From Baekduia alba (GTDB taxonomy: Bacteria > Actinomycetota > Thermoleophilia > Solirubrobacterales > Solirubrobacteraceae): 64,000 nt of DNA. The notes under the pieces are model-generated. The model did not search any database and was not told where the DNA came from. It was given only the letters and a program-made list of their open reading frames with translations. How positions within the stretch are numbered: the first letter of the stretch is position 1; every line of letters starts with the position of its first letter. The DNA lies in the NCBI RefSeq assembly GCF_028416635.1, contig NZ_CP114013.1, positions 2,976,001-3,040,000 of the forward strand. The letters run 5' to 3'. Below, piece by piece: positions 48,311 to 58,835 of the stretch. The position numbers were made by a program, and so were the translations under genes.

Positions 48311-49456
48311 GTGAGCTCGCGTGCCGTGATGGAAGCCGCTGCTGAGCGCTCGCGGGTCACGTTCCGGGCGCGCGTGGACCGCCTGCGCCGTCTCGCCCCC
48401 ACCCTGCTGCTCGGCGCGGTCGGCGCGGGCGTGGCCTGGCTGATCGCCAAGTCGATCTTCGGGACGACCGGCGCCTTCTTCGCGCCGGTCGCGGCGATCA
48501 TCACGCTGGGGCTGACGGTCGGGCAGCGGCTGAACCGGGCGATCGAGCTGTCGGTCGGCGTCCCGCTGGGGATCGCGCTGGCCGACGTCCTGGTCCTCGA
48601 GCTCGGCGCCGGCCCGCTGCAGCTGGTCGGGATCGTGTTCCTGGCGACGTCGGTCGCGGTCTTCGTCGGCGGCGGCGCGCTGCTGGTGACGCAGGCGGCG
48701 GTCTCGGCGATCCTGGTGGTGACGCTGCAGCCGCCGACCAACGGCCTGTCGTTCACGCGAGCGGCCGACGCGCTGATCGGGTGCGGCGTCGCGCTGGTCC
48801 TGAACTTCGTGGTCGCGCCGATCGACCCGATGGCCCTGGTCCGGCGCGAGGCCGCGCCCGTCCTGCGCGAGCTGGCCGCGGTGCTCGACGACATCGCCGG
48901 CGCGCTGGCGTCCCGCGACCGCGACGCCGCGACCTCCGCCCTGCGCCGGGCGCGCGACATCGACGTCTACACGCAGCGGTTCCTGGAGGCCCTGACGATC
49001 GGGCGCGAGACCGCGGCCGCGGCGCCGGCGCGCCGGACCCAGCGCGGGTCGCTGGCGATCTACAGCGACGCGGGCGGCCAGCTGGACCTGGCGGTGCGCA
49101 ACGTGCGCGTGCTGGCGCGCGGCGTCGTGCGCGCGATCGAGACCGGCGACCGCGTCCCGCCCCAGGTCGTCGACGCGCTGCGCGAGCTGCGCCAGTCCGT
49201 CCTCGCGCTCACAGCGTGGATGGACGACGCCGACCGCGTCGACGGGGTCGTCGAGCCGGCGATCGCGGCGGCGCGCCACGCCAGCGAGGTGCTGGAGATG
49301 ACGACCAACCTGTCCGTGTCGGTCATCGTCGGCCAGGTGCGCTCGACGGCGGTCGACCTGCTGCGCACGACCGGGATGGCGCCGGAGGAGGCGCGGGCGC
49401 GGATCCGGGGCGGCGGCGTCGCGCCGAGCCTCGGGTCGGTGGGCGACGAGGCCTAG
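48311..49456 (+). CDS. FUSC-family / aromatic acid exporter-like membrane protein
   Basis: A 381-residue protein. Residues ~28-175 contain about six TM helices (LAPTLLLGAVGAGVAWLIAK, FFAPVAAIITLGLTVGQRL, IGIALADVLVLELGAG, VAVFVGGGALLVTQAAVSAI, ALIGCGVALVLNFVVAPIDP). The remaining ~200 residues are a helical cytoplasmic domain (VRREAAPVLRELAAVLDDIA, LRELRQSVLALTAWMDDA). This half-length FUSC arrangement is found in YqjA/ArAE-type exporters. GTG 48311 is preceded by AGGAG-like bases. Convergent with the GGDEF gene through a shared CTAG stop. Confidence 0.85.
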   Translation: MSSRAVMEAAAERSRVTFRARVDRLRRLAPTLLLGAVGAGVAWLIAKSIFGTTGAFFAPVAAIITLGLTVGQRLNRAIELSVGVPLGIALADVLVLELGAGPLQLVGIVFLATSVAVFVGGGALLVTQAAVSAILVVTLQPPTNGLSFTRAADALIGCGVALVLNFVVAPIDPMALVRREAAPVLRELAAVLDDIAGALASRDRDAATSALRRARDIDVYTQRFLEALTIGRETAAAAPARRTQRGSLAIYSDAGGQLDLAVRNVRVLARGVVRAIETGDRVPPQVVDALRELRQSVLALTAWMDDADRVDGVVEPAIAAARHASEVLEMTTNLSVSVIVGQVRSTAVDLLRTTGMAPEEARARIRGGGVAPSLGSVGDEA

Positions 49457-50493
49457 GCCTCGTCGCGCAGGACCACGCGGTCCTTGCCCTGCGCCTTGGC
49501 CGCGAGCAGGCACTCGTCGGCGGCCTTGAAGAGCGTCGCGACGGTCGCGGCGTCGCCGGGCGCGACGGCCACCCCGGCCGAGGCGGTGATCGGGCCGGGC
49601 TCGGCCCACGTCGCGGCGCGGATGGCGCTGACGAGGCGCTCGGCGGCCTGCGCGGCCTCGGACTCGTCGGCGTTGGGGAGGATCACGGCGAACTCCTCGC
49701 CGCCGGTGCGGCACACGACGTCGCCGGCGCGCACGTGGCCTTCCAGCACCTGGCCGAAGCCCACGAGGACCTGGTCGCCGACCGGATGGCCGTGGACGTC
49801 GTTGACGCGCTTGAAGTCGTCGACGTCGAGCAGCACCAACCCGACGGGCGCGTCGTCGCGCTGGGCGCGGGCCAGCTCAGCGGCGAGCCGCTCGTGGAAG
49901 TGGCGGCGGTTGAAGAGGCCGGTGAGCTCGTCGGTGCGCGCCTGCTCGGAGAGCAGCTCGCGGCGGCGCGCGTTGTCGTAGGCCAGCGCGGCGAGGCTGG
50001 CGAAGCGCTTGATGAGCTGCGCCTCCTCGGGCGAGAAGGTCGGGATCGTGCCCTCGAAGCCGGGCGCGCAGTCCTCACGCCAGACGTTGAGCGTGCCGAT
50101 GACGCGGTCGCCCACGATCAGCGGGCAGAAGACGATCGCCTCGAGGTCCTGCGGCGTGCCGTCGATGATGTAGCGGCCGAACCACGGATGTCCGGGCTCG
50201 AGGTGGACGATCTGGCGGGACTTGACGACCTTGCCGGTGATCGAGTTGTCGCTCTTGGGCGCGTCGGCCAGCGTCTCCTCGACCCACAGGCCCTCGGCGA
50301 AGGCGGGGATGAGCACGTTGCGCTCGGCGTCGACCTCGTAGATGGCGAGGCTCGAGAACGGCACGATGCCGCGCAGCGCGCGGGCCATCGACTGCAGGGT
50401 GGCGTCCAGCGACTGCTCGGCGAGGACGCCGGCGACCGCGTCGATGATCGACTCGAGCCCGCGGACGACGCGGGTGGCGGAGACGGTCTGCAT
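49453..50493 (-). CDS. GAF-GGDEF diguanylate cyclase
   Basis: A 346-residue cytoplasmic protein. A GAF domain covers ~10-165 (SIIDAVAGVLAEQSLDATLQ, FSSLAIYEVD, FCPLIVGDRVIGTLNVWRED). An intact GGDEF domain follows: TDELTGLFNRRHFHERLAAE, VLLDVDDFKRVNDVHGHPVG, and active-site CRTGGEEFAVILPNAD. No EAL partner is present and I see no RxxD inhibitory site five residues before GGEEF. It should make c-di-GMP in response to a small ligand or redox signal on GAF. ATG 50493 follows a GGGGAG ribosome-binding site; the frame upstream is open but lacks family similarity. Confidence 0.9.
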   Translation of the reverse strand: MQTVSATRVVRGLESIIDAVAGVLAEQSLDATLQSMARALRGIVPFSSLAIYEVDAERNVLIPAFAEGLWVEETLADAPKSDNSITGKVVKSRQIVHLEPGHPWFGRYIIDGTPQDLEAIVFCPLIVGDRVIGTLNVWREDCAPGFEGTIPTFSPEEAQLIKRFASLAALAYDNARRRELLSEQARTDELTGLFNRRHFHERLAAELARAQRDDAPVGLVLLDVDDFKRVNDVHGHPVGDQVLVGFGQVLEGHVRAGDVVCRTGGEEFAVILPNADESEAAQAAERLVSAIRAATWAEPGPITASAGVAVAPGDAATVATLFKAADECLLAAKAQGKDRVVLRDEA

Positions 50494-50631
50494 GTGCTCC
50501 CCAGATACGTCGGCCGGCAGGGCCTCGACATTGAGCGTTCCCGTTGGTCTGCGAACGTTCTTAACGCGTTGTGCAGCTTTTGGCGGCGCGGATTGACCGT
50601 CGTTGCCCACACAACTATTGTGTGTGCAAGC

Positions 50632-51735
50632 GTGCCCGACACCCTCGCTCCCCGCCACCTCGCGCAGCGCCTCGCCCAGATCGCCGTCCTCCTCGGCGTC
50701 GGCGTGCTACTGCTCGTCACCCTGCCGGGCCTCGGCGAGGTCCGCGAGCGCTTCGCCGACGCGCGGCCCGGCTGGGTCGCCGCCGCCCTGGTGCTGGAGC
50801 TCGGCTCGGTCGTCTCGTTCGTCGTGGTCTTCCGCGGCGTGTTCTGCGTCCGGATGCCCTGGGGCTTCAGCGCGCAGGTCGGGCTGTCCGAGCAGGCGGC
50901 CAACGTCCTGCTGCCGGCTGGTGGCGCGGGCGGCTTGGCGCTCGGCGCGTGGGCGCTGAGCCGGGCCGGGATGTCGCCGGGCCACATCGCGCGCCGCACG
51001 GTCGCGTTCTTCCTCATCACCAGCTCGGCGAACTTCGTCGTCGCCGTCCTGGCCGGGATCGGGCTGCTGACCGGCGTGCTGGCGGGCGACGCGAGCTTCG
51101 CGCTCGCCGCGGTCCCGGCCGCGCTGGCGCTGCTGGTGATCGGCAGCGTCTTCGCGCTGCCACGCGTCCTGCCCGAGCGCCCGGCGCCGGTCGCGACCGA
51201 CGGCCACGCGCTCGTCGGGCCGTCGAAGCTCGCCAAGCTGCGCCGGACCGTGGCGCGTGCCGGCGCGACGATCTCCGAGGGCCTGGGCGACGCCGGCGCG
51301 CTGCTGCGCTCCGGCCGGCCGTCGGTGATCGGCGGCGGCCTCGGCTACCTGCTCTTCGACATGGCGGCGCTGGCCGCCGCGTTCCACGCCTTCGGCCACG
51401 CGCCGGCGCCCGGCGACTTCCTGATGGCCTACGTCTTGGGCCAGCTCGGCGGCCTGGTACCGCTGCCGGGCGGCGTCGGCGGGACCGACGGCGGCCTGGT
51501 CGCGGCGCTCGCGCTCTACGGCACGCCGCTGGCCTCGGCGACCGCCGCGGTCCTGGCCTACCGCGCGTTCCAGCTCGGCCTCCCCGCGCTGGCCGGCACC
51601 GTCGCCTTCGGGCGCCTGCGCCAGACGCTCCAGAGCGACACCCGCGCCGCCGCGGGCTGCGAGCCGATGGCCGCGCCCGTGCGGGTCGCGGTCGCGGCGG
51701 TGCCGGACTCGGCGCCGCACGAGATCGCCGCCTAG
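50632..51735 (+). CDS. UPF0104/lysylphosphatidylglycerol synthase-like membrane protein (flippase domain)
   Basis: A 367-residue integral-membrane protein with about eight TM helices (IAVLLGVGVLLLVTLPG, WVAAALVLELGSVVSFVVVF, FFLITSSANFVVAVLAGIGL, LGYLLFDMAALAAAF). Family signatures are LSEQAANVLLPAGGAGGLAL (~83) and FLMAYVLGQLGGLVPLPGGVGGTDGGLVAAL (~265; written here as consecutive segments FLMAYVLGQLGG and LVPLPGGVGGTDGG). These match the MprF-like flippase half (lysylphosphatidylglycerol synthase TM region) without the aminoacyl-transferase domain. GTG 50620 is an alternative start. Divergent from the GAF-GGDEF gene. Confidence 0.85.
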   Translation: MPDTLAPRHLAQRLAQIAVLLGVGVLLLVTLPGLGEVRERFADARPGWVAAALVLELGSVVSFVVVFRGVFCVRMPWGFSAQVGLSEQAANVLLPAGGAGGLALGAWALSRAGMSPGHIARRTVAFFLITSSANFVVAVLAGIGLLTGVLAGDASFALAAVPAALALLVIGSVFALPRVLPERPAPVATDGHALVGPSKLAKLRRTVARAGATISEGLGDAGALLRSGRPSVIGGGLGYLLFDMAALAAAFHAFGHAPAPGDFLMAYVLGQLGGLVPLPGGVGGTDGGLVAALALYGTPLASATAAVLAYRAFQLGLPALAGTVAFGRLRQTLQSDTRAAAGCEPMAAPVRVAVAAVPDSAPHEIAA

Positions 51736-51903: not shown

Positions 51904-54261
51904 CTAGATGCGCTGCGCGGTCATCAGCCAGGTGCGCAGCTCGTCGAAGGGCAGCGGCCGGCTGAGCAGGTAGCCCTGCGCGAGGTCGCAGCCCAGCGCC
52001 TTGAGGAAGGCGAGCTGCTCGGAGGTCTCGATGCCCTCGGCGGTCACGCTGCGGCCGAGCGCGTGGGCCATGCCGACGACCGCGGCGACGATCGCGCCCG
52101 AGGACGCGTCGCCCGGCAGGCCGGCGACGAACGAGCGGTCGATCTTGATGCCGTCGATCGGCTGCTCCTTGAGCATCGACAGCGACGAGAAGCCCGTCCC
52201 GAAGTCGTCGAGCACGAGGCGGACGCCGAGGTCGCCGAGCGCGGCGATCGCGTGCCCGGTCGCCAGATCGGAGCCCAGCAGCGCGGTCTCGGTGATCTCG
52301 ACCACGAGCTGCTCGGCCGGCAGGCCGCTGTCGGCCAGCGCGCCCTCGATCGCCGACAGGAACGCCGGGTGGCGCAGCTGGCGCGGGGAGACGTTGACGG
52401 CGAGCGCGACGTCGCGGCCGGTGGCCTCGCGCAGCGCGACGGTCGCCGCGCAGGACTCGCGCAGCACCCAGGCGCCGAGCGCGTCGATCAGGCCGGTCTC
52501 CTCGGCGATCGGGATGAACTCGTCCGGCCCCACCACGCCGAATGTCGGGTGCGTCCAGCGCAGCAGCGCCTCGATCCCCGTGACCTCGCCGGACGCGAAC
52601 GCCGCGACCGGCTGGGCCACGAGGTGCAGCTCGCCGCGGTCCAGGGCGCCGCGCAGCGCGGCCTCGACCTCCAGCCGGCGCCCCGCCCCGTCGCCGTGCG
52701 CGTGGCCGTGCCGGTGGCGGTTGCCGCCCTCGTCCTTGGCGGCGTACATCGCCTCGTCGGCGCGGCGGACGGCCTCGTGGGCGTCGACCTCGCCGCCCGG
52801 GATGACGACGACGCCGACGCTGACGGTCGGCGCCAGCCCGTCGGCGCCCGCGCTCGTGGAGCGCGCGACGGCCTCGACGACGCGCTCGGCGATCGCCGCG
52901 GCGGTGTCGGCGTCGATGTCCTCGGCCACGACGAGGAGCTCGTCGCCGCCGAAGCGCGCGACCGTGTCCCCCGGGCGCACGCAGCCGGCGACGCGCTCGG
53001 CGACGTCGCGCAGGACCCGGTCGCCGACGTCGTGGCCCAGCGTGTCGTTGACCAGCTTGAGCCGGTCGAGGTCGATGAACAGGACCGCCAGCGCCGTGCC
53101 GCTGCGGCGGGCGCGGGCCAGCGCGTGCGTGAGGCGGTCGAACAGCAGGGTGCGGTTCGGCAGGCCGGTGAGCGGGTCGTGCGTGGCGCGGTGGACGAGC
53201 TCCTCGGTCGCGCGCTGGCGCTCGATCGCGATCCCGGCCAGCTGCGCGGCGTCGCGCAGGAACTGGCGATGCTGCTCGGTGGGCGCGCGCGGGACCCGGT
53301 CGTAGACGCCGAAGGTCCCGAGCACGTCGCCGGCGGCGCCGAGGATCGGGAAGGACCAGCACGACCGCAGGCCGTGCTCGCGCGTCAGCGCCAGGAACGG
53401 CTGCCACTTCGGATCGCTCTCGATGTCGGCGCTGACGATCTCGGTCGCGTGGTGGGCGGCCGCGCCGCAGGACCCGACCTCCGGCCCGATCACGAGGCCT
53501 TCGAGCTGAGCGACGTAGGACGCCGGGAGCGTCGGCGCAGCGCCGTGGTGGACGGTCCGCAGGATCGGGTCGAGCAGCAGGACCGACCCGCGCAGGCGCG
53601 GGTCGAAGCCCTCGATGCTCAGCACGACCTCGCGCAGGATGTCGCCCAGCGGCGCGTCGGCGGCGATCAGCTCGTGGATGCGGTTGTGGGCGGCGACGAC
53701 GCCGTTGGCGCGGCGCAGGTCCTCGGCGGCGACCCGCAGCGCGATCTCCGACGCGATCGCCTCGGCGACCGAGCCGAGCAGCGCGACGTCGTCCTGCGTC
53801 CACGTCCGCGGGTCGTGCTGGGACACGCACAGCGAACCCACCCGCTGACCGTGGACGACGATCGGCGTGCCCGCATAGGACACCAGGCCGTAGTGGCGCG
53901 GCCCGGCGATCGCCGCGAGCTCCGCATGCGCGCGGGTGTCGTCGACGGCCAGCGGCGCGCCGCCGGCGATGACGTACTGGCAGATGGCCAGCTCCGGCGG
54001 GGCGCTGATCCCGGCGACGTCGTCGATGCCGACGACGCTCTTGAGGTACTGGCGCGTGTCGTCGAAGAGCGTGACGAGCGCGACCGGCGTGCGCAGCGCG
54101 CGGGCGGCCAGCGCGGCCCAGCGGTCGAACGCCTCCTCGGGCGCCGAGTCCATCAGGCCGGTCCGGCGCAGGACGTCGAGCCGCGCCGGGTCGGTCAGGA
54201 CCGCGGCGAGCCGATCGGGGCGGAAGCGTTCGGGGTCGTAAAGCACCGCTCCCTGGATCAT
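51904..54261 (-). CDS. Double-GAF GGDEF-EAL protein (c-di-GMP turnover)
   Basis: A 785-residue soluble protein. GAF 1 (~20-175) contains LRRTGLMDSAPEEAFDRWAA, VALVTLFDDTRQYLKSVVG and ICQYVIAGGAPLAVDD. GAF 2 (~185-350) contains RLRGSVLLLDPILRTVHHGA, SCGAAAHHATEIVSADIESD and CWSFPILGAAGDVLGTFGVY. The GGDEF domain has ARFGGDELLVVAEDID (GGDEL, probably still competent). The EAL domain is intact: GIEALLRWTHP, LVVEITETAL, LDDFGTGFSS, IKIDRSFV and AEGIETSEQL. The sensed ligands are unknown. ATG 54261 starts MIQGAVLYDPERF. Confidence 0.92.
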   Translation of the reverse strand: MIQGAVLYDPERFRPDRLAAVLTDPARLDVLRRTGLMDSAPEEAFDRWAALAARALRTPVALVTLFDDTRQYLKSVVGIDDVAGISAPPELAICQYVIAGGAPLAVDDTRAHAELAAIAGPRHYGLVSYAGTPIVVHGQRVGSLCVSQHDPRTWTQDDVALLGSVAEAIASEIALRVAAEDLRRANGVVAAHNRIHELIAADAPLGDILREVVLSIEGFDPRLRGSVLLLDPILRTVHHGAAPTLPASYVAQLEGLVIGPEVGSCGAAAHHATEIVSADIESDPKWQPFLALTREHGLRSCWSFPILGAAGDVLGTFGVYDRVPRAPTEQHRQFLRDAAQLAGIAIERQRATEELVHRATHDPLTGLPNRTLLFDRLTHALARARRSGTALAVLFIDLDRLKLVNDTLGHDVGDRVLRDVAERVAGCVRPGDTVARFGGDELLVVAEDIDADTAAAIAERVVEAVARSTSAGADGLAPTVSVGVVVIPGGEVDAHEAVRRADEAMYAAKDEGGNRHRHGHAHGDGAGRRLEVEAALRGALDRGELHLVAQPVAAFASGEVTGIEALLRWTHPTFGVVGPDEFIPIAEETGLIDALGAWVLRESCAATVALREATGRDVALAVNVSPRQLRHPAFLSAIEGALADSGLPAEQLVVEITETALLGSDLATGHAIAALGDLGVRLVLDDFGTGFSSLSMLKEQPIDGIKIDRSFVAGLPGDASSGAIVAAVVGMAHALGRSVTAEGIETSEQLAFLKALGCDLAQGYLLSRPLPFDELRTWLMTAQRI

Positions 54262-56668: not shown

Positions 56669-57574
56669 GTGGCCGCCCCTTCGCGACGTCCGCTGCGCAT
56701 CGGCATCCAACTCCCCGAGGTCGAGCGGCAGGTCCGCTGGCCGGAAGTGATGGCGATGGCGCGGGCGGCGGAGGAGTGCGGCTTCGACTCCGTCTGGCTC
56801 GGCGACCACCTGCTCTACCGCGGCGACGGTCGCCCCGAGCGCGGCCCGTGGGAGGCGTGGACCACGTTGTCCGCCTTGGCCGCCTCGACCGAGCGCCTCG
56901 TGCTCGGGCCTCTCGTCGCCTGTGCCGCGTTCCACCCGCCCGGCGTGATCGCCAAGATGGCCGCGACGATCGGCGACATCAGCGGCGGCCGCTTCGTCCT
57001 CGGCCTGGGCGCCGGGTGGAACGCCCCCGAGTTCTCCGCCTTCGGGCTCCCGCAGGACCACCGCGTCTCGCGCTTCGAGGATTCCTTCGCGATCGTCCGC
57101 GGCCTCCTGCGCGGCGAGCGCGTGACTCTGGACGGGACCTACTGGCAGGCCGACGACGCCGTGCTGGTCCCCGCGCCGGCCGCCCCCGTCCCGCTGATGA
57201 TCGGCTCCAACGGCCCGCGGATGCTGAGCATCGCGTTGCCCCACGCCGACGCCTGGAACACCTGGTACGACGGCTACGGCAACACCGCCGAGGGCTTCGC
57301 GTCGCTCAACACGCGGATCTCCGAGGCCGCGGTCGCGGCCGGCCGCGTCCCGGCCGAGATCACCCGCAGCGCCTGCGCGTTCGTGCTCGTCGACCCGTCC
57401 TCGGACGAGCGCGAGATCAAGCCCGAGGCGCCGCCGATCACCGGCACGCCCGCGCAGATCGCGGCGCGCCTGCGCGAGCTCCACGACGCGGGCGCCGACG
57501 AGGTCGTCCTGGTCGTCTCGCCGATCACGGAGGCGTCGATCCGCGCGCTGGGCGAGGCCGTCGCCGCGGTCTAG
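56669..57574 (+). CDS. LLM-class F420-dependent oxidoreductase
   Basis: A 301-residue luciferase-like barrel. Segments: RIGIQLPEVERQVRWPEVMA, EECGFDSVWLGDHLLYRGDG, RLVLGPLVACAAFHPPGVIA, ISGGRFVLGLGAGWNAPEFS, DGTYWQADDAVLVPAPAAPV, PLMIGSNGPRMLSIALPHAD. LGLGAGWN marks the F420 branch. GTG 56669 is the likely start. It converges on the borosin methyltransferase gene with a shared CTAG stop, so it is not in that operon; a functional link is possible but unsupported. Confidence 0.88.
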   Translation: MAAPSRRPLRIGIQLPEVERQVRWPEVMAMARAAEECGFDSVWLGDHLLYRGDGRPERGPWEAWTTLSALAASTERLVLGPLVACAAFHPPGVIAKMAATIGDISGGRFVLGLGAGWNAPEFSAFGLPQDHRVSRFEDSFAIVRGLLRGERVTLDGTYWQADDAVLVPAPAAPVPLMIGSNGPRMLSIALPHADAWNTWYDGYGNTAEGFASLNTRISEAAVAAGRVPAEITRSACAFVLVDPSSDEREIKPEAPPITGTPAQIAARLRELHDAGADEVVLVVSPITEASIRALGEAVAAV

Positions 57575-58398
57575 GCGCGCGCGGTCTCCGGGATGGCGCG
57601 CTGCGCCTTGCGCAGCACGTAGGAGTCGCTAAGCCCGAGCTGCTCGACCATGGTGCGGTCGGCGAGCGCCGGCCGCGCGGGCAGCACGACCAGCGTCGAG
57701 ATCCCCGACACCGGCGCGCGCGGCAGGTCGGCGACGGCGACGCGCGCCATCAGCGGCGCGGTGATCGGGTAGCGCGCCGCCTCGTAGACGATCGCCTCGT
57801 GCTCGGCGCTGTAGGCCTGCGTGAGGTGCGCGGCGAGCAACTCGAGCCCGCGGATCGACGTCTCCGTCTCGTGCGTGAGCTGGCCGATGCAGGAGATCTG
57901 CCACAGCACGAGCGGGACGTGCTCGTCGAAGCGCCGGCGGTAGACCAGGAAGTCGGTCGCCTCGAAGGACTGGCAGCCGGTCGCGCCCGGGTCGATCCCG
58001 AGGTCGGCGAACAGGCAGTCCTCGGCCGAGACCCCGGGCAGCATCCCAGCCCGGTAGCCCTCCTCGCGCGCACGCCGCACGGCCTCGTGGCCGGGGTAGA
58101 CGAACACGCCCGGGTGGCCGTAGAACGCCGCGCAGACGTCCTCGCCCGCGCGGACGCACTCGAGGATCCGGTCGACCATCTGGTGGTAGGTCTCGATCCG
58201 CTGCTTGCCCTCGCCGTAGAGGTCGATCAGGTCCTCGGCCGACGGGTTGAGGTCGGCCAGCCAGCCCTTGGTGACCGGGTCGGTGACCACGTACAGGACC
58301 TTGGTCGCGTCGCGCAGCGCCGACTCGGTCTCCAACGTCACCTGACCCATCAGCTGGATGCCCGTGCCGACCACCCACAGGCTGCCCGGCCGCGCCAC
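57571..58398 (-). CDS. Split borosin alpha-N-methyltransferase (tetrapyrrole-methylase fold)
   Basis: A 275-residue SAM enzyme of the tetrapyrrole methylase superfamily, but its sequence follows the borosin (OphMA) branch rather than corrin enzymes. It has SLWVVGTGIQLMGQVTLETE (start), VLYVVTDPVTKGWL, FYGHPGVFVYPGHEAVRRAR, GMLPGVSAEDCLFADLGIDP and EATDFLVYRRRF. The residues reported as catalytic in OphMA (as I recall Tyr66, Arg72, Tyr76, Tyr98) align with Tyr61, Arg67, Tyr71 and Tyr93, a constant offset of five. The core peptide that follows this domain in fungal borosins is missing. Instead a separate precursor-like gene ends 6 bases upstream. GTG 58398 start. Expected reaction: iterative N-methylation of the precursor's backbone amides. 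Confidence 0.88.
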   Translation of the reverse strand: MARPGSLWVVGTGIQLMGQVTLETESALRDATKVLYVVTDPVTKGWLADLNPSAEDLIDLYGEGKQRIETYHQMVDRILECVRAGEDVCAAFYGHPGVFVYPGHEAVRRAREEGYRAGMLPGVSAEDCLFADLGIDPGATGCQSFEATDFLVYRRRFDEHVPLVLWQISCIGQLTHETETSIRGLELLAAHLTQAYSAEHEAIVYEAARYPITAPLMARVAVADLPRAPVSGISTLVVLPARPALADRTMVEQLGLSDSYVLRKAQRAIPETARA

Positions 58399-58404
58399 GG
58401 CCGC

Positions 58405-58641
58405 CTAGAAGTCCACGAGGATCGTGACGATGACGCGGATCCTGATCGCCGCGTCGGTCCCGCCGAGCTCGGTCTGGATGCGCCGCTCGTCCTGCGAGAG
58501 CAGCGCGAGCTTCTGGGTGTCCGACAGGCCCGCGCGGTCCATCGCCCCGACGGGATCCTCCAGGAACGAGTTGCGGGCGGACGGCTCCTTCGAGAGCCCG
58601 GTCAGGAACTCGTGGAAGGCCTTCGACGACGGTTCGGCCAT
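58405..58641 (-). CDS. Split borosin precursor peptide
   Basis: A 78-residue peptide. Residues ~6-60 form the helical recognition domain seen in bacterial borosin precursors and LigA-like small domains: KAFHEFLTGLSKEPSARNSF, LEDPVGAMDRAGLSDTQKLA, LLSQDERRIQTELGG. The tail, residues ~62-78, TDAAIRIRVIVTILVDF, is hydrophobic and beta-branched. It is the probable core, with VIVTILV the most likely N-methylated stretch. The start ATG 58641 has a consensus AGGAGG. The gene is followed after 6 bases by the methyltransferase. No protease or transporter gene for maturation is adjacent. Confidence 0.85.
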   Translation of the reverse strand: MAEPSSKAFHEFLTGLSKEPSARNSFLEDPVGAMDRAGLSDTQKLALLSQDERRIQTELGGTDAAIRIRVIVTILVDF

Positions 58642-58651
58642 GGTGGCGAAA

Positions 58652-58657
58652 CCTCCT
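58652..58657 (-). promoter_or_regulatory. Consensus Shine-Dalgarno of the borosin precursor
   Basis: AGGAGG on the minus strand, 10 bases before ATG 58641. It is a full match to the anti-Shine-Dalgarno complement, stronger than at most starts in the window. That fixes the precursor start and implies high translation of the substrate relative to its GTG-started methyltransferase. Confidence 0.8.
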
Positions 58658-58762
58658 GGGGTTGACGGGCGCGAGCCTCCCACGCGCATCCCGCCGCTGT
58701 CCAGTCCACTTCGTTAAGACCTGCGGAACGCTAAGCAACGATCAGCAACTATGGCCTGACAG

Positions 58763-58835
58763 TGGGCCGAGGAGGAGTCGAACCCCCATCGGACGGATTA
58801 TGAGTCCGCGGCTCTACCAGTTGAGCTACCGGCCC
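58763..58835 (-). tRNA. tRNA with CAU anticodon (Met elongator or Ile2)
   Basis: The minus strand folds as a full cloverleaf of 73 bases. Acceptor GGGCCGG/TCGGCCC (one G-T pair), D-arm GCTC...GAGC, anticodon stem CGGA/TCCG with loop CTCATAA (anticodon CAT), and T-arm GGGGG TTCGACT CCTCC. The discriminator is A and no CCA is encoded. CAU is read by elongator tRNA-Met or, after lysidine modification, tRNA-Ile2; I cannot decide between them. It lies upstream of the borosin operon on the same strand. Confidence 0.92.

What the first reader, a model, noticed from the sequence alone, without database searches (positions are those of the whole stretch)
57571..58641. Split borosin RiPP locus: precursor peptide plus backbone N-methyltransferase
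Seen: a 78-aa peptide with consensus AGGAGG, then after 6 bases a tetrapyrrole-methylase-fold enzyme whose sequence tracks the fungal borosin enzymes (YGHPGVF, MLPGVSAED, LFADLGIDP, EATDFLV). Known: borosins are RiPPs with backbone alpha-N-methylation; in bacterial split forms the precursor is a separate peptide with a helical recognition domain. Inference: this operon makes an N-methylated peptide in a Solirubrobacterales-like host, with a core unlike any I can recall.
Basis: partly seen in the sequence, partly recalled or inferred. Interest (0 to 1): 0.95.

Follow-up and report, generated by a model that had tools for sequence, protein, structure and literature searches.

The report
Bacterial split borosin precursor–methyltransferase pair
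An actinobacterium carries a two-gene unit that almost certainly makes a small peptide and an enzyme that methylates the peptide's backbone, a new member of a peptide family (borosins) already known from fungi and many bacteria.

Summary
The observation and the interpretation both hold. On the minus strand, a 78-aa peptide (58405-58641, AGGAGG 10 bases before its ATG) is followed after 6 bases by a 275-aa methyltransferase (57571-58398, GTG). The enzyme's best solved relatives are the borosin enzymes SonM (E 2e-61) and OphMA (6.5e-59); cobalamin/siroheme methylases come far behind by sequence (0.0016) and by predicted fold (Z about 29 against 17). The SonM residues Y58, R67, Y71 and Y93 are all present. 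The peptide's first ~57 residues form a borosin-binding domain: a profile of it and eleven adjacent relatives finds SonA at E 1.6e-14. The unit recurs: 66 of 91 distinct related loci have such a peptide within 3 kb on the same strand, often just upstream, with a variable tail. The host slot, between an oxidoreductase gene and a tRNA-Met, holds other genes in a sister species, so the pair looks like accessory cargo. It is a split borosin of type IV-like architecture, a new member of a known kind. The Ile/Val-rich core (AIRIRVIVTILVDF) resembles tails of Bradyrhizobium, Rhizobium and Rhodoblastus borosins. Methylation, number of sites, product release and biological role were not tested.

The parts
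58405..58641 (-). precursor peptide gene, 78 aa: borosin-binding domain (residues ~9-57) plus C-terminal core ~A64-F78 (AAIRIRVIVTILVDF)
   Evidence: family profile matches SonA at 1.6e-14; coding by G+C3 0.97
58652..58657 (-). Shine-Dalgarno AGGAGG of the precursor
   Evidence: sequence; one search prints the leader
57571..58398 (-). backbone N-methyltransferase, 275 aa, GTG start; Y61, R67, Y71, Y93 correspond to SonM Y58, R67, Y71, Y93
   Evidence: roles of the SonM residues from PMC8429565
58399..58407 (-). junction TAG-GCGGCC-GTG: stop of the precursor six bases before the start of the enzyme, no Shine-Dalgarno of its own; suggests translational coupling (inference)
   Evidence: sequence; similarly short junctions in relatives
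58762..58835 (-). tRNA-Met; flank of the slot that holds the borosin pair, not part of the pathway
   Evidence: syntenic flanks with other cargo in G006
56669..57574 (+). F420-dependent LLM-class oxidoreductase, convergent with the enzyme (4-bp overlap); other flank, judged not part of the pathway
   Evidence: Pfam Bac_luciferase 5.5e-55; present without borosin in a sister species; no homologue in the borosin loci fetched

Best explanation
A two-gene split borosin operon. The 78-aa peptide folds at its N-terminal two thirds into a borosin-binding domain that docks on the (presumably homodimeric) SAM-dependent methyltransferase; its Ile/Val-rich C-terminal tail then runs through the active site and is methylated on backbone amide nitrogens, one site after another from the N- to the C-terminal side. 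Shown here: both genes, their family membership by sequence and fold, the catalytic residues, and the recurring gene pairing. Inferred from SonM/SonA: docking, methylation, N-to-C order. My site prediction (inference; register uncertain): the even positions I66, I68, V70, V72, I74, V76, which are all beta-branched aliphatic, two residues apart like SonA L63/I65. Release and export of the product are unexplained: no protease or transporter lies beside the pair.
For: Enzyme against solved structures: SonM E 2e-61, OphMA 6.5e-59, nearest non-borosin 0.0016. Predicted enzyme model pLDDT 92, best matches SonM/OphMA at Z about 29 over 252-261 residues. Y61, R67 and Y71 invariant in 17 homologues, Y93 nearly so; R67, Y71 and Y93 invariant in 41. 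Precursor family profile finds SonA at 1.6e-14. Adjacent precursor in 66 of 91 distinct methyltransferase loci (70 of 95 counting four contigs fetched twice), including Shewanella aestuarii, whose enzyme groups with SonM. SonM residues and mechanism from PMC8429565.
Against: No methylation was measured. The peptide alone matches SonA only at E 0.2 and Pfam LigA just below its cut-off; a family profile was needed. In the predicted precursor-enzyme fusion the core has low confidence (pLDDT about 54) and is drawn as a helix, so threading was not shown. The product has no visible maturation genes.
Confidence: 0.93

Rival explanations
1. The enzyme is a tetrapyrrole (cobalamin/siroheme) or diphthamide methylase and the peptide is unrelated.
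For: Shared fold: Pfam TP_methylase 6.1e-17; siroheme synthase and SUMT match at Z 16-17.
Against: Borosin enzymes win by more than 50 orders of magnitude in E-value and about 12 Z units; borosin tyrosines and arginine are kept; the adjacent BBD peptide recurs.
Confidence: 0.02
2. The pair is a borosin by descent, but the methylated peptide is never released: the BBD peptide with its N-methylated tail is itself the functional protein.
For: No protease, cyclase or transporter beside the pair; PMC8429565 says that no type IV pathway is yet tied to a final product.
Against: Other RiPP precursors are cut; maturation genes may lie elsewhere in the genome, which was not searched for them.
Confidence: 0.2
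3. Readthrough of the single in-frame TAG makes a fused precursor-methyltransferase, like type 0 borosins.
For: The two ORFs are in one frame with one stop and six bases between.
Against: Frames of 43 related pairs are 15/11/17, as by chance; the enzyme has its own GTG.
Confidence: 0.03

Closest known systems
SonM/SonA, type IV split borosin of Shewanella oneidensis (PDB 7LTC and others; PMC8429565)
   Same: Separate precursor with BBD and C-terminal core; 43% identical enzyme of the same fold; same catalytic residues; adjacent genes
   Different: Here the precursor gene lies before the enzyme gene (in the Shewanella aestuarii locus it lies after); core longer and different (AIRIRVIVTILVDF); Thermoleophilia host
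Split borosin of Streptomyces sp. NRRL S-118 (PMC8429565)
   Same: Split architecture, actinobacterial host; methylation shown by LC-MS/MS in that paper
   Different: Sequences not compared here
OphMA, fungal type I borosin (omphalotin)
   Same: 42% identical methyltransferase domain, Z 29; hydrophobic core (from memory Val/Ile-rich)
   Different: Enzyme, clasp and core are one chain in OphMA; two genes here
Split borosin pairs of Bradyrhizobium sp. 155 plasmid (L036), Rhizobium wuzhouense (L044), Rhodoblastus (L039)
   Same: Precursor then enzyme on one strand; tails with alternating Ile/Val/Arg or Val/Thr
   Different: Enzymes only 42-51% identical; two precursors in tandem in L039 and L044

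Membership tests
Borosins (split, type IV-like; 'class 3' of PMC11395268) | Methyltransferase homologous to borosin alpha-N-methyltransferases | tested here: met
Borosins (split, type IV-like; 'class 3' of PMC11395268) | Core-contacting/catalytic residues Y58, R67, Y71, Y93 of SonM | tested here: met
   Y61, R67, Y71, Y93
Borosins (split, type IV-like; 'class 3' of PMC11395268) | Precursor encoded separately from the enzyme | tested here: met
Borosins (split, type IV-like; 'class 3' of PMC11395268) | Borosin-binding domain in the precursor | tested here: met
   family profile E 1.6e-14 to SonA; LigA 3.6e-5, just under the cut-off; helical bundle predicted
Borosins (split, type IV-like; 'class 3' of PMC11395268) | Peptide tail enters the active site | tested here: inconclusive
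   fusion model gives low confidence for the tail; coordinates not available
Borosins (split, type IV-like; 'class 3' of PMC11395268) | Backbone alpha-N-methylation of the core | not testable with these tools
   needs co-expression and MS/MS
Borosin types V-X (numbered subtypes) | Subtype-specific architectures | not tested
   the defining papers (PMC9019853, 10.1021/acs.biochem.1c00764) are not held
Tetrapyrrole/cobalamin methylases | Closest relatives by sequence and fold | tested here: not met
   E 0.0016 and Z 16-17, far behind borosins

The most novel reading that the evidence does not exclude
The core's alternation (aliphatic beta-branched residues at even positions 66-76, Arg/Arg/Ile/Thr/Leu/Asp between) is methylated at every second residue, up to six times, giving a stiff amphipathic strand that acts on membranes or on a partner, a core class not described for borosins.
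Probability: 0.2. Interest if true: 0.5.

Novelty: new member of a known kind. Interest (0 to 1): 0.32.

Why it matters
Backbone N-methylation makes peptides protease-resistant and membrane-permeable. This adds a compact enzyme-substrate pair with a long hydrophobic core from Thermoleophilia, a class for which the paper search showed no borosin report (ten best shown), and a survey of precursor tails that shows how freely the core varies on a conserved binding domain.

Tried and rejected
Tetrapyrrole-methylase reading: rejected by sequence and fold. In-frame TAG as readthrough fusion: frames random in relatives. LLM oxidoreductase as tailoring enzyme: it stands in a sister species without the borosin pair and is absent from the other borosin loci. 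A single-protein scan of genome contigs found nothing; the alignment scan found 584 relatives. Promoter/terminator scan: nothing. Transfer between phyla: the enzyme groups weakly (SH-aLRT 82, open fork) with mostly proteobacterial enzymes including SonM and not with the Thermoleophilia ones, too weak to claim.

Full report
Observation. A 78-aa ORF starts at 58641, with AGGAGG ten bases upstream, ends with TAG at 58405, and after six bases a GTG opens a 275-aa ORF that ends at 57571. Codon-position G+C shows that both are coding. There is one copy in the 5.86-Mb genome.

Enzyme. Against all solved structures, the best matches are the split borosin enzyme SonM (E 2e-61) and the fungal OphMA, dbOphMA and MroMA (E 6.5e-59 to 7.6e-53); the first non-borosin, a uroporphyrinogen methylase, has E 0.0016. 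A model built from 41 related sequences (pLDDT 92) matches SonM and OphMA at Z about 29, and siroheme and cobalamin methylases at Z 16-17. Y58, R67, Y71 and Y93 of SonM, whose mutation lowers activity (PMC8429565), correspond to Y61, R67, Y71 and Y93 here; R67, Y71 and Y93 are invariant in 41 homologues.

Peptide. Alone it gives a near-cut-off LigA match and a weak SonA match (E 0.2). In PMC8429565 the borosin-binding domain of SonA is a five-helix bundle with structural homologues that cap dioxygenase active sites, which fits the LigA match. A profile of this peptide and eleven peptides found next to related enzymes finds SonA at E 1.6e-14, then gallate dioxygenase at 0.01 and protocatechuate dioxygenase alpha chain at 0.29. 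The tail AAIRIRVIVTILVDF follows.

Relatives. Among 399 genomes of the host's class, eleven others have an enzyme at E below 1e-20: ten in another family (44-55% identity) and one, distant (36%), in the host's own family; none of the six other genomes of the genus searched has a borosin-level match. A profile scan of named genomes gave at least 584 relatives; the best 80 come from Cyanobacteriota, Pseudomonadota, Acidobacteriota, Chloroflexota, Myxococcota, Actinomycetota, Thermoplasmatota and others. Of 95 loci examined (91 distinct, four contigs having been fetched twice), 70 (66) have a BBD peptide within 3 kb on the same strand; in several others the BBD lies in the same ORF as the enzyme or on the other strand. 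The binding domain is conserved and the tail varies widely. Similar tails: Bradyrhizobium AFRVIRIRNIRIRFGV, Rhodoblastus INVTIVVVVAP, Rhizobium VNVVVVVL, Sinorhizobium VSVNVTITLGISIP.

Setting. In the sister genome G006 the oxidoreductase on one side and the tRNA-Met and following genes on the other side are syntenic (77% and 81% DNA identity), but between them lie a 338-aa secreted-type protein and a 76-aa membrane-type protein (my reading of the ORFs) and no borosin. The pair is therefore probably accessory cargo in a variable slot, and the oxidoreductase is probably not a tailoring enzyme.

Mechanism. By analogy with SonM/SonA, the binding domain docks the peptide, and the tail is methylated stepwise from the N-terminal side. 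The short junction without a second Shine-Dalgarno suggests that translation of the enzyme is coupled to that of the peptide. These are inferences. A fusion model obtained by reading the TAG as Gln gave confident domains (pTM 0.83) but a poorly defined tail (pLDDT about 54, helix), so threading remains untested; the unmethylated SonA core was also helical in one crystal structure (PMC8429565). Extending the SonA alignment without gaps puts SonA L63 and I65 at I68 and V70 here; the register is uncertain.

Verdict. A split borosin of type IV-like architecture; new member of a known kind. Which of the numbered types IV-X it fits best could not be settled because the defining papers are not held.

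Noticed in passing
L021:10371-10396, L022:2325-2350, L023:3480-3493, L032:10892-10947, L027:8306-8347: Five Thermoleophilia borosin enzymes have no ATG/GTG/TTG in frame between the upstream stop and the first conserved motif. L021-L023 share a CTG five codons before it; in L032 a CTG overlaps the precursor's stop (CTGA). Suggests unusual starts with translational coupling, or assembly errors.
   Followed up: partly
L030:8729-9133, L027:8348-8749, L106:2938-3912, L110:2751-3911, L091:3015-3995, L095:3015-3995: Some precursors carry long repetitive tails (GEHTGDDD, EPPAD, PQVMPWQQMPAGAVA, VVYAAG repeats) behind the binding domain, which suggests multi-core or non-core extensions.
   Followed up: no
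window 57575-58761 and L126:3629-4940: Slot between the LLM oxidoreductase gene and tRNA-Met holds entirely different genes in two species of one genus with syntenic flanks: a variable cargo site beside a tRNA.
   Followed up: partly
L037, L038, L040, L043, L047, L052, L057, L060, L063: Cyanobacterial borosin loci have the precursor about 1-3 kb downstream of the enzyme, with tails rich in DP repeats such as DPGPDPLPDPDP.
   Followed up: no
window 49453-50658 and 51904-54261, minus strand: Two neighbouring proteins that read as GAF-GGDEF and GAF-GGDEF-EAL cyclic-di-GMP enzymes (from the sequence, not searched).
   Followed up: no
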